DNA of 64,000 nt from Evansella cellulosilytica DSM 2522 (GTDB lineage: Bacteria; Bacillota; Bacilli; Bacillales; Salisediminibacteriaceae): NCBI RefSeq assembly GCF_000177235.2, contig NC_014829.1, forward strand, positions 4,526,001-4,590,000. Reading direction: 5' to 3'. Below, piece by piece: positions 22,120-52,615 of the stretch (the first letter of the stretch is position 1; the number at the start of each line of letters is the position of its first letter). The notes below the pieces were generated by a model. That model saw nothing but the letters and a program-made list of their open reading frames with translations, did no database searches and was not told the DNA's origin. The translations under genes and the position numbers were made by a program.

Positions 22120-22199
22120 GCAGTGGAATTTCGCCGTATCTCTTAAAGTACTAGTGAGTGCTTTTCTCACTAGTACGCACGGCGATAAAATTCCACTGC
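22120..22199. repeat. Structured dispersed repeat (GTGAGTGCT family), copy 1
   Basis: An 80-bp nested palindrome: outer GCAGTGGAATTT / AAATTCCACTGC, middle CGCCGT/ACGGCG, inner GTACTAGTGAG / CTCACTAGTAC around a GTGAGTGCTTTTCT core. It shares the core with copies at 37956 and 42057. It lies between convergent genes. Confidence 0.75.
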
Positions 22200-38247: not shown

Positions 38248-38548
38248 TTTCCCCTCCCTACGTTGTTCATTTTTCAGAAGTCGTTTCTTCAACATGATAT
38301 TTATTGTTGATTCGAGTATCGCACACATTTTGCTTATTGAAAATACTTATTAAAACAAAGAAATTTTAGCAAAACAAATGATAATTGCATTTTATTCTCC
38401 ATAAACATTACCACAATCGATTTCCCAGTATGATGATATAAGACTATAGAAGGAACTCTAAATAAATAGTTTTGGTTGAAGTCCTTATAGTTATATGATA
38501 CAACTATTAACGAGTTATAAAATATTTCAGAATAAACTTCATATTTTC

Positions 38549-38636
38549 ACTACTAGGGGTGCTACATAGCTGAGAGAGACAAATAAGTCTTAACCCTTAT
38601 AACCTGATCTAGTTCGAACTAGCGTAGGGAAGAAGT
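38549..38636 (+). ncRNA. TPP (thiamine pyrophosphate) riboswitch
   Basis: THI-element conserved parts occur in order: ACTAGGGGTGC, GCTGAGAGAG, AACCCTTATAACCTGATCTAG and CTAGCGTAGGGAA. It is followed by a terminator at 38697, giving TPP-dependent premature termination ahead of tenA-thiZXY. Confidence 0.95.
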
Positions 38637-38693
38637 GTTTTTCAATGATTAATATACGACTGCAGCCATCGTATATGTCTCTTACATTGTTAG

Positions 38694-48602: not shown

Positions 48603-48690
48603 TAGAATATACTAGGTAACCCGGCTATCATACTATGCTTAGACCCGTGGCTTTGCGTCCTGCACTTTCGCACAGTTTGCCCCAATATTA
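48603..48690 (-). ncRNA. Cyclic-di-GMP-I (GEMM-I) riboswitch
   Basis: The minus strand carries the GEMM-I consensus in order: GGCAAACTGTGCGAAAGTGC, then AGGACGCAAAGCC, then GGGTCTAAGCATAGTATGAT, then AGCCGGGTTACC. The GAAA tetraloop, its receptor CTAAG region and the conserved GGACGCAAAGCC are all present. It precedes an intrinsic terminator and a GGDEF-EAL gene. Confidence 0.93.
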
Positions 48691-48735
48691 AATTTATTTT
48701 AAAAATTTCCAATTATCGACATAACTCTTCATTTT

Positions 48736-49979: not shown

Positions 49980-50870
49980 TCACTTCTTATCACTCAGCTT
50001 TCGCTTCACTTTATCAGGATAATTTGTAATAATCCCCGATACCCCCCAATTTAATGCCGTTTCAATTTCGAATTCATCATTTAATGTATAGGGATGAATA
50101 TATAACTGAAAACTTTTTGCCTTTCGTACATAGTCTTCATTTATTCGTTTAAAATTCGGTCCTACGCCTACCGCATACTTTTTAATCAATTTTAACTGTT
50201 GCTCGTCTGTATTTGGTCGTTTTAATAACTGGAATAATGGAATATTGGCGTTTTGTTTGTGGATGTTAACTAAACACTTTTCATCAAACGATTGTATGAT
50301 GATGTGATCGTCTTCAATTTGATATTTTTCAAGGAGGTTTAATAGTTCCATCTCCATCTTTGGGTAAAGATGGGGAGATTTTAATTCTATGATGTATTGA
50401 ATACTATTGCCAAAGGTCTCAAATACTTGCTCTAACGTAGGTACCTTTGCTCCAACGTACTCTTTTTTTGCGTATTTCGGGTATTTTTCGTTAAACCATG
50501 ATCCAGCATCTAGTTGTTGTATGTCATGTAATGAAAGATCCTTTACTTTTCCCTCACCATTTGTCGTTCGATCAACTAATTTGTCATGTAATACTATTAG
50601 TGTACCATCTTTTGTACGTTGAATGTCCAACTCGATAAAATCAGCTTCCATTTTCTTAGCTAATGCAAACGCTTCTAACGTATTTTCTGGCGCATAGCCA
50701 GAGGCTCCACGGTGCGCAACAACATAAGTATCTTCTATAGGAAGCTTTGCTTTGTTTACGCTATACGCTAATTCATGTATCTGTGTATTTACTGCTGTGC
50801 TTGCTTGAGATAATGGTATCAACATCATCAATAACAATGCGATTTTTATACTCATGTAAGCTTTGTGCAA
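49980..50870 (-). CDS. Secreted glycerophosphodiester phosphodiesterase
   Basis: Hydrolyses glycerophosphodiesters to glycerol-3-phosphate. 296 aa with an N-terminal signal peptide (IALLLMMLIPLSQASTA). The GDPD active-site motifs are VVAHRGASGYAPENTLEAF (catalytic His), FIELDIQRTKDGTLIVLHDKLVDRTTNG (second His and metal ligands) and YIIELKSP. Likely start is TTG at 50870, with AAAGGG about 10 nt upstream; ATG at 50855 has no Shine-Dalgarno. It lies 18 nt downstream of the stop-to-start gap with the CapA gene on the same strand, so the two could be co-transcribed. The 52-bp repeat array begins about 130 nt upstream. Confidence 0.9.
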   Translation of the reverse strand: MHKAYMSIKIALLLMMLIPLSQASTAVNTQIHELAYSVNKAKLPIEDTYVVAHRGASGYAPENTLEAFALAKKMEADFIELDIQRTKDGTLIVLHDKLVDRTTNGEGKVKDLSLHDIQQLDAGSWFNEKYPKYAKKEYVGAKVPTLEQVFETFGNSIQYIIELKSPHLYPKMEMELLNLLEKYQIEDDHIIIQSFDEKCLVNIHKQNANIPLFQLLKRPNTDEQQLKLIKKYAVGVGPNFKRINEDYVRKAKSFQLYIHPYTLNDEFEIETALNWGVSGIITNYPDKVKRKLSDKK

Positions 50871-50996: not shown

Positions 50997-52452
50997 GAGA
51001 ATTTCAGATGGGGTGTTGCTAACTTACCTTCAGGTGCTTTTTCTTTTGCTCAAGGGCTGATGGGGCGCCGCCATCTTTCCTTCACACTTTTTTTTATTCG
51101 CTCAAGGGCAGTTGGGGCAACGCCATCTTACCTTCACGACACTTTTTATTTGCTCAAGGGCTGATGGCAACGCGCCATCTTAACTTCACGCTATTTTTTA
51201 TTTGCTCAAGGGCTGATGGCAACGCGCCATCTTACCTTCACAACACTTTTTATTTGCTCAAGGGCTGATGGCAACGCGCCATCTTACCTTCACACTATTT
51301 TTTATTCGCTCAAGGGCAGATGGGGCGCCGCCATCTTACTTTCACACTATTTTTTATTTGCTCAAGGGCAGATGGGACAGCGCCATCTTACCTTCACGCT
51401 ATTTTTTATTCGCTCAAGGGCTGATGGCAACGCGCCATCTTACCTTCACGCTATTTTTTATTCGCTCAAGGGCTGATGGCAACGCGCCTTCTTTCCTTCA
51501 CAACACTTTTTATTTGCTCAAGGGCTGATGGCAACGCGCCATCTTACCTTCACACTATTTTTTATTCGCTCAAGGGCAGTTGGGGCGGCTCCATCTTACC
51601 TTCACAACACTTTTTATTTGCTCAAGGGCTGATGGCAACGCGCCATCTTACCTTCACGCTATTTTTTATTCGCTCAAGGGCAGATGGGGCGGCTCCATCT
51701 TACCTTCACGCTATTTTTTATTCGCTCAAGGGCAGTTGGGGCAACGCCATCTTACCTTCACGCTATTTTTTATTTGCTCAAGGGCAGATGGCAACGCACC
51801 ATCTTACCTTCACGCTATTTTTTATTTGCTCAAGGGCTGATGGCAACGCGCCATCTTACTTTCACACTATTTTTTATTTGCTCAAGGGCAGATGGGACAG
51901 CGCCATCTTACCTTCACGCTATTTTTTATTCGCTCAAGGGCAGATGGCAACGCGCCATCTTACCTTCACGCTATTTTTTATTCGCTCAAGGGCAGTTGAG
52001 GCGGCTCCATCTTACCTTCACACTTTTTTTTATTCGCTCAAGGGCAGATGGGGCGGCTCCATCTTACCTTCACGCTATTTTTTATTCGCTCAAGGGCTGA
52101 TGGCAACGCGCCATCTTACCTTCACAACACTTTTTATTTGCTCAAGGGCAGATGGGACGGCTCCATCTTACCTTCACGCTATTTTTTATTTGCTCAAGGG
52201 CAGATGGCAACGCGCCATCTTACCTTCACACTTTTTTTTATTCGCTCAAGGGCAGTTGGGGCAACGCCATCTTACCTTCACAACACTTTTTATTTGCTCA
52301 AGGGCAGTTGGGGCGGCGCCTTCTTTCCTTCACACTTCTTTTTCTACGCTCAAGGGCAGATAACACACCGCCATCTTCCCTCCACACACTTTCCCCACCG
52401 CTCAAAGGCAGATGGCAACGCTCTCGCTCGCTCCCTTTCCCTAAAACGTAGA
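50997..52452. repeat. 52-bp tandem repeat array, about 28 units
   Basis: The landmark CTCAAGGG occurs at 51049, 51101, 51153 and so on to 52297 and 52349. It then appears once as CTCAAAGG at 52401, always exactly 52 bp apart. A diverged unit precedes at 50997. Each unit has a small hairpin GATGG-N6-CCATC (for example GATGGCAACGCGCCATC), then TTACCTTCAC and a T-rich block TATTTTTTATT. Variation is confined to a few positions (loop of the hairpin; CGC versus ACA versus ACGC before the T-run), and outer units are more degenerate. The plus strand is open in all three frames because 52 is not a multiple of 3, but none has a ribosome binding site or plausible protein. Confidence 0.95.
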
Positions 52453-52490: not shown

Positions 52491-52560
52491 GGCTCCACTC
52501 ACCGCGCGACCACTATAAAAAACCACTTATAGTGGTCTTTAAGGGATTGCGGTGGCTACG
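52491..52560. repeat. Nested palindrome with terminator-like core
   Basis: The outer CTCACCGC / GCGGTGG encloses a perfect hairpin GACCACTATAA / TTATAGTGGTC (52509-52537) followed by TTTAAGGG. Its closing GCGGTGG pairing resembles that of the GTGAGTGCT repeat family. Confidence 0.5.
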
Positions 52561-52571
52561 CACATTGCTTA

Positions 52572-52615
52572 GAGGCTGACTCAAAAGGTAAAAATCGACC
52601 TTTTGAGTCAGCCTC
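52572..52615 (-). terminator. Terminator of the agu operon (GTTGACTC hairpin family)
   Basis: GAGGCTGACTCAAAAGGT is perfectly mirrored by ACCTTTTGAGTCAGCCTC with an 8-nt loop. It lies 10 nt past the aguB stop. It is the best-preserved member of the family. Confidence 0.75.

What the first reader, a model, noticed from the sequence alone, without database searches (positions are those of the whole stretch)
50997..52452. Strictly phased 52-bp tandem array of hairpin units
Landmarks recur at exactly 52 bp for about 28 units with no insertion or deletion, while bases inside the GATGG-N6-CCATC hairpin loop vary. The outermost units decay. Fifty-two bp is close to five helical turns, so every hairpin faces the same side of the DNA. 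The compensating variants in the stem (GGCGCC, GACAGC, GGCGGCT, GCAACGCG) suggest recombination among a few unit types. It is not a CRISPR (no spacers) and is unlikely to be coding. It could be a protein-binding array, a structural RNA or a nucleoid site.
Basis: seen in the sequence. Interest (0 to 1): 0.75.

Follow-up and report, generated by a model that had tools for sequence, protein, structure and literature searches.

The report
Replication-oriented 52-base-pair tandem hairpin arrays
The repeat block in this window belongs to a group of non-coding tandem arrays that have unrelated sequences but mostly the same 52-base-pair repeat length, and whose copies point in the direction set by chromosome replication, which suggests that shape and replication direction matter more than sequence.

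Summary
The array is real: 25 clean units at exactly 52 bp plus decayed ends, apparently non-coding. It is not a one-off. A covariance model finds the unit at 24 loci of the 4.68-Mb genome, and all 24 point one way relative to replication (11 of 11 minus on the right arm, 13 of 13 plus on the left). A 91-bp family (9 of 9) and a long-palindrome family (27 of 28) do likewise; a control dispersed repeat does not (13 of 20). Orientation follows the fork rather than genes: 15 of 15 arrays between convergent ORFs and 2 of 2 between lagging-strand ORFs obey. In 2.26 Mb sampled from 11 genomes, 28 of 62 arrays have period exactly 52, in three species of one genus; 30 arrays of 51-52 bp fall into 19 sequence groups. 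A second species' unrelated 52-bp family is polarised 11 of 11. Favoured mechanism (0.40): REP/RAYT-like hairpin repeats made on the single-stranded lagging-strand template and kept at five turns. RAYT-like genes adjoin 89-103-bp arrays at 7 of 25 loci, but no 52-bp array was seen beside one. The pattern is strong; the mechanism is unsettled.

The parts
51015..52415 (+). Tandem array of the 52-bp unit: X arm (CCATCTTACCTTCAC), 14-nt pyrimidine-rich linker, Y arm (GCTCAAGGGCAGATGG), about 7-nt GC-rich spacer; decayed at both ends. The plus strand is the leading-strand template on this arm.
   Evidence: TRF 51048-52387; units listed; spacing 26 of 26 at 52; X-first, Y-last phase read from other loci
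52572..52615 (.). 18-bp perfect inverted repeat, probable terminator of the minus-strand hydrolase gene, between that gene and the array
   Evidence: arms 52572-52589 and 52598-52615; terminator role by inspection
49980..50870 (-). Flanking GDPD (glycerophosphodiester phosphodiesterase) gene, leading strand
   Evidence: ORF, Pfam PF03009
52626..53507 (-). Flanking carbon-nitrogen hydrolase gene, leading strand; its 3' end faces the array
   Evidence: ORF, Pfam PF00795
22170..22192 (+). Core of a copy of family B, another repeat oriented by replication arm
   Evidence: genome position 4548170-4548192 plus
52541..52571 (+). Copy of family A, the dispersed repeat used as unpolarised control
   Evidence: genome position 4578541-4578571 plus

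Best explanation
The array is one member of a class of intergenic tandem hairpin repeats of this genus. SHOWN: (1) copies of the unit are dispersed and point the same way relative to the fork, with the pyrimidine-rich linker on the leading-strand template and the purine-rich strand on the lagging-strand template; (2) orientation follows replication where gene orientation allows the two to be told apart; (3) unrelated sequences share a period of almost exactly 52 bp and, mostly, inverted-repeat arms with a purine/pyrimidine-skewed linker; (4) arrays of similar build with 89-103-bp units lie beside some RAYT-like Y1 (HUH) genes. INFERRED: an enzyme acting on hairpins in the single-stranded lagging-strand template, as IS200/IS605 and TnpA-REP enzymes do, makes and spreads them, so a copy enters in only one orientation; tandem growth follows by slippage or unequal exchange; the 52-bp register (about five turns of B-DNA) is kept because the units act as duplex DNA on one face of the helix. 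The cellular role is not shown.
For: Polarity: 24 of 24 loci (origin; GC-skew switch), 9 of 9 for the 91-bp family, 27 of 28 for family B, 11 of 11 for an unrelated 52-bp family in G002, against 13 of 20 in control family A. Fork, not gene: 15 of 15 convergent sites, 2 of 2 sites between lagging-strand ORFs. RAYT link for 89-103-bp arrays: 7 of 25 fetched loci against none of period 85-105 in 2.26 Mb of samples. Lagging-strand preference of IS200/IS605 enzymes: PMC6006769 (passages). Period: 28 of 62 arrays exactly 52.
Against: No 52-bp array was seen beside a RAYT-like gene in the 25 loci or in 13 kb around each of the other two own Y1 genes. The REP tag GTAG/GTGG is absent at the hairpin foot of the window unit (GTAA in 20 of 22). 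The three own Y1 proteins score below the NCBIfam cut-off. A Y1 enzyme does not by itself explain an exact 52-bp period. No covariation. Polarity of the RAYT-adjacent arrays in relatives could not be resolved. The composition proxy agrees in only 24 of 30 arrays.
Confidence: 0.4

Rival explanations
1. Functional polarised chromosome element: duplex arrays phased on five helical turns bind a protein and are read by a directional machine (replisome, DNA translocase, SMC or segregation complex), so selection removes the wrong orientation.
For: Period 52 kept across unrelated sequences; strict polarity; in the G002 family the arms are invariant and the linker keeps length 25 and pyrimidine bias while its sequence drifts, at the level of 11 locus consensuses.
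Against: At least 7 sequence groups in one genome are hard to serve with one sequence-specific protein; the window's family is absent from the 8 other genomes of the genus; the site in G008 has a 123-bp gap without array.
Confidence: 0.28
2. Neutral satellite-like repeats: slippage at hairpins amplifies units, one orientation survives better because hairpins on one template are deleted faster, and an ancestral 52-bp register is inherited while sequence drifts.
For: Decayed outer units; copy number varies from 1 to about 26 between loci; orientation-dependent deletion of hairpins is established in general (recalled).
Against: Does not explain dispersal to 24 loci in one lineage, or how indels stay excluded while sequence is wholly replaced; other families of 89-103 and 91 bp exist.
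Confidence: 0.2
3. RNA element: arrays are transcribed from the leading-strand gene as 3' hairpins or small RNAs, and polarity only reflects gene direction.
For: By ORF calls the 24 own-genome loci lie 3' of a leading-strand gene (two need small uncertain ORFs to be disregarded), and 78% of sampled coding is leading-strand (ten stretches around the terminus).
Against: 15 of 15 convergent and 2 of 2 lagging-pair sites follow the fork; two G002 arrays lie between divergent ORFs; no Rfam family; no covariation; probable terminators lie between gene and array at three loci read (by inspection).
Confidence: 0.08

Closest known systems
REP/BIME/REPIN elements with RAYT (TnpA-REP) transposases
   Same: Short intergenic palindromes, dispersed, often 3' of genes; RAYT-like genes in the genome, one beside a 91-bp array; three RAYT-adjacent arrays of relatives carry GGTAGGTG at the hairpin foot
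   Different: Window unit lacks GTAG/GTGG at the foot, is tandem in one orientation with a pyrimidine linker at fixed 52 bp, and follows the fork strictly; BIMEs alternate orientation (abstract of PMC2817692)
STAR elements of staphylococci
   Same: Intergenic, Firmicutes, tandem repeats of about 50 nt in variable number (PMC3532100, passages)
   Different: Defined by the motif TNTGTTGNGGCCCN, absent here; the passages seen mention no fork orientation
Pneumococcal BOX, RUP and SPRITE
   Same: Dispersed intergenic repeats, enriched between convergent genes; boxB is tandem (PMC3049150, passages)
   Different: Only 60.8-63.3% on the leading strand, mirroring genes, against 24 of 24 here
Fork-polarised motifs (Chi, KOPS, SpoIIIE recognition sequences)
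   Same: Orientation set by the replication arm (recalled, no call)
   Different: Those are short scattered motifs, not tandem hairpin arrays with a fixed period (recalled)
IS200/IS605 elements
   Same: Hairpin-recognising Y1 enzymes that work on the lagging-strand template (PMC6006769, passages)
   Different: No transposase inside the 52-bp units, no element ends identified here

Membership tests
REP / RAYT system | GTAG or GTGG tetranucleotide 0-2 nt 5' of the hairpin foot (definition seen in PMC6006769) | tested here: not met
   Window array, purine strand: GTAA before the GATGG stem in 20 of 22; CGTG or TGTG before the AAGG foot in 20 of 20
REP / RAYT system | A RAYT (REP-associated Y1 transposase) in the genome | tested here: inconclusive
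   Three Y1_Tnp genes over the Pfam cut-off; best NCBIfam match is REP_Tyr_transpos at 49-76 bits, cut-off 80
REP / RAYT system | RAYT gene flanked by its own repeat | tested here: not met
   52-bp unit not found beside the three own Y1 genes; a 91-bp array of another sequence is beside one
STAR elements | Motif TNTGTTGNGGCCCN | tested here: not met
   TNTGTTGNGGCCC has 0 matches in the array and the window, both strands
CRISPR | Near-identical repeats separated by unique spacers | tested here: not met
   Variable positions take a few recurring states, no unique spacers
CRISPR | cas genes nearby | not tested
   No cas search was run
Protein-coding repeat | Period a multiple of 3 and a recognisable domain | tested here: not met
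   Period 52; the 295-aa ORF has no Pfam family
Known structured RNA | Rfam match above gathering score | tested here: not met
   None in the array; only two far-below-threshold eukaryotic families at E up to 1
Replication-polarised element | Homologous copies on both arms in mirror orientation | tested here: met
   24 of 24 loci; 11 of 11 in G002 for another family

The most novel reading that the evidence does not exclude
A previously undescribed class of bacterial chromosome element: tandem hairpin arrays whose sequence is free but whose period (52 bp, five helical turns) and orientation to the replication fork are fixed, that is, a geometry-defined, fork-polarised DNA structure rather than a sequence family.
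Probability: 0.4. Interest if true: 0.88.

Novelty: new variant of a known kind. Interest (0 to 1): 0.74.

Why it matters
The dispersed bacterial repeats read about here are sequence families with mild or no strand bias. In this genus one period and one orientation rule recur across unrelated sequences, so what seems constrained is geometry relative to the helix and the fork. If a single-strand mechanism on the lagging template makes them, they are a genome-wide record of fork direction and a Gram-positive counterpart of REP/RAYT. If selection keeps them, they point to an unknown polarised chromosome function. Both readings can be tested in a culturable bacillus.

Tried and rejected
Paper searches for this class or a 52-bp repeat; nothing in the listings describes it (listings show 12-25 papers at most, open-licence papers only).

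Rejected: compensating stems; protein; Rfam RNA; CRISPR; polarity as a mere reflection of gene direction. A perfect hairpin in L003 that looked like a compensated family member is probably the upstream gene's terminator. The own Y1 genes as owners of the 52-bp unit: no direct support. Tandem rows beside Y1 genes in L132 (15 bp) and L135 (51 bp) look coding and were not counted.

Rows dropped: of 12 further weak loci that I read, 8 look like degraded family members and obey the rule (32 of 32 if added; the one at 839760 is very weak). Four lack the X arm and look coding, so I treated them as chance; three of those four break the rule. The backwards-pattern control gave 3 hits. Two weak reverse-strand hits lie inside loci scored on the other strand and were not counted as loci. 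Family B: one exception (1003188 plus); one copy near the terminus (2434934) left out. Family A: one copy near the terminus (2434852) left out. The minus hit 3835180 is at the palindromic end of a plus array. In one search arrays with fewer than 2 copies were left out (this removed two tRNA duplications of 89 and 93 bp seen). One search also shows one 54-bp row (L249) outside the sample. Notebook entries 1 and 5 contain slips (wording on strand counts; '28/29' for family B, x15 for one array); the numbers here are recounted from the calls.

Full report
WHAT WAS CHECKED. The window is bases 4,526,001-4,590,000 of a single 4,681,672-bp contig. From memory that size fits Evansella (Bacillus) cellulosilytica DSM 2522; no call names the organism. 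The array is as described: TRF 51048-52387, 52 bp x 25.8, anchors exactly 52 apart in 26 of 26 steps, decayed units at both ends. It lies between a GDPD gene and a carbon-nitrogen hydrolase gene, both on the minus strand, which is the leading strand on this arm. No protein family or Rfam family above threshold covers it.

ANATOMY. At several other loci the array begins with CCATCTTACCTTCAC (X) and ends with GCTCAAGGGCAGATGG (Y). The natural unit is then X, a pyrimidine-rich linker of usually 14 nt, Y, and about 7 nt of GC-rich spacer. X and Y are imperfect inverted repeats with a 2x2 mismatch (GC/TA). A neighbouring Y-X or X-Y pair can form a hairpin, but there is no covariation, and window units fold only mildly better than shuffles. 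A few hairpins at array ends are fully paired (L004, L050, L055, L056, L071), too few to matter in the test.

DISPERSAL AND POLARITY. A covariance model from 18 units (R1) gives 76 matches at E up to 1 in the own genome, at 24 loci (only 150 of 2,634 first-look candidates were scored). dnaA starts at base 139 and GC skew changes sign between 2.35 and 2.45 Mb. The 11 loci on the right arm are on the minus strand and the 13 on the left arm on the plus strand (p 6e-8 against 0.5; 0.0026 against the 78% leading-strand coding share of ten stretches around the terminus). Eight degraded copies agree; four coding-like pattern hits were set aside as chance, three of which disagree. Other repeats of the same genome: family B (long palindrome plus pyrimidine tract) obeys in 27 of 28 unambiguous loci; a 91-bp tandem family in 9 of 9; family A, a copy of which lies at window 52541-52571, does not (13 of 20). 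Two further 52-bp families, their orientation read by eye, agree at 5 of 5 and 3 of 3 loci. Against a 0.78 baseline the small families are not significant alone (0.11 for the 91-bp family, 0.29 and 0.47 for the last two).

REPLICATION, NOT TRANSCRIPTION. By ORF calls, 11 loci of the window's family lie between convergent genes, as do 2 of the 91-bp family and 2 of the G002 family; the 15 follow the fork. Two arrays have both flanking ORFs on the lagging strand: L257 of the own genome (GDSL lipase and short-chain dehydrogenase) and L249 of G002 (right flank a response regulator; left ORF without Pfam match and partly over another array, so uncertain). Both follow the fork. Two G002 arrays lie between divergent ORFs (L250, L253) and follow it too. 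Genes were called only as long ORFs; eight flanks were checked with Pfam, six matched.

PERIOD 52 WITHOUT SEQUENCE. TRF on 20-kb samples of eleven genomes plus the window (2.264 Mb) lists 62 arrays of period 30-200 with at least 2 copies: 28 at exactly 52, 2 at 51, none at 50, 53 or 54. One of the 28 is the window array itself, which is not a random draw. They come from G000 (13), G004 (5) and G002 (10), one genus; the 51-bp ones from G002 and from G017 of another genus. Seven other genomes (80-200 kb each) had none, among them G003 of the same genus. Unit spacings: 203 of 264 are 52; 45 are 51, of which 39 in the two 51-bp arrays. The 30 arrays of 51-52 bp fall into 19 groups without detectable similarity, 7 of them in the own genome. 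Many have clear inverted-repeat arms, but in 10 of 30 the best stem scores only 2-4. The purine-rich linker strand equals the leading strand (sign of local GC skew) in 24 of 30; exceptions include L157 of the own genome, L199 of G002 and the G017 array, and skew itself may favour this.

REPLICATE IN A SECOND SPECIES. A 52-bp family of G002 with arms TGTCCGC/GCGGACA is on the minus strand at 3 loci of the positive-skew arm and on the plus strand at 8 loci of the negative-skew arm: 11 of 11 (the origin of G002 was not located, and skew is weak, +0.017, at the sample nearest two of the minus loci). Across the 11 locus consensuses the arms are invariant, and the 25-nt linker keeps length and pyrimidine bias (60-88%) while its sequence drifts.

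LINK TO Y1 ENZYMES. The own genome has three Y1_Tnp genes, each matching NCBIfam's REP-associated transposase below its cut-off. One lies beside the 91-bp x 16.5 array next to what reads, by eye, as the atp operon. A search for its relatives hit 37 of 60 genomes. Of the 25 loci fetched, 7 (own plus six relatives) have an adjacent array of 89-103-bp units with hairpins and purine-skewed linkers, against none of period 85-105 in the 2.26 Mb of samples. Three of these carry GGTAGGTG at the hairpin foot, as canonical REPs carry GTAG or GTGG (PMC6006769, passages). No 52-bp array was seen beside such a gene. The window unit has GTAA there (20 of 22). Polarity of these arrays in relatives was not resolved.

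AGE. The window's family was not found in the 8 other genomes of the genus. Beside the orthologous hydrolase, G008 has a GDPD-like gene after 123 bp and G007 after about 400 bp, without array, against 1,755 bp here. This fits gain in this lineage but cannot exclude loss there.

COMPARISON. Pneumococcal BOX, RUP and SPRITE lie on the leading strand in 60.8-63.3% of cases, mirroring genes (PMC3049150, passages). Bordetella BRE repeats are not co-oriented with the fork (PMC3110155, passages). The E. coli triplex motif has no strand bias (PMC4666352, outline and passages). STAR elements are tandem at about 50 nt with a motif absent here (PMC3532100, passages). GTAG and CGTC REPs lie between tandem or convergent genes and lack a described Gram-positive tandem form in the passages seen (PMC3733652).

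JUDGEMENT. The pattern is strong; the mechanism is not settled. I favour hairpin repeats made on the single-stranded lagging-strand template by RAYT-like or similar enzymes, with the 52-bp register kept by duplex geometry (0.40), over a selected polarised function (0.28), neutral slippage (0.20) and an RNA role (0.08).

Noticed in passing
window 22170-22192; own genome, 35 hits: Family B, a palindrome of roughly 100 bp plus pyrimidine tract, follows the replication arm at 27 of 28 unambiguous loci and is itself tandem at 1.56 Mb (151 bp x 3.8) and 3.09 Mb (135 bp x 3).
   Followed up: partly
own genome 4525130-4525701, just left of the window; L117 4649-6152: A 91-bp tandem family with AACCCGGGTT hairpins, 9 loci, polarised 9 of 9; the largest array (16.5 copies) lies between a RAYT-like gene and the atp operon.
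   Followed up: partly
L123, L124, L125, L126, L130, L131: RAYT-like genes of six relatives have tandem hairpin arrays of 89-103 bp beside them, of unrelated sequences, always purine-rich on one strand.
   Followed up: partly
L079 5891-6544, L145 12809-13859, L146 99-588: Two different 52-bp families lie side by side as a composite array at three far-apart loci, in mirrored orientation on the two arms.
   Followed up: no
L217 6018-7701 (G017): A 51-bp x 33 hairpin array in another genus of the family, opposite to the composition rule.
   Followed up: no
own genome 1.77-2.80 Mb: The window's family has no model-supported copy in about 1 Mb around the terminus, where other 52-bp families occur.
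   Followed up: no
window 48612-48691 minus and 38545-38647 plus: A c-di-GMP-I riboswitch lies just upstream of a large ORF that reads as a diguanylate cyclase/phosphodiesterase, and a TPP riboswitch elsewhere.
   Followed up: no
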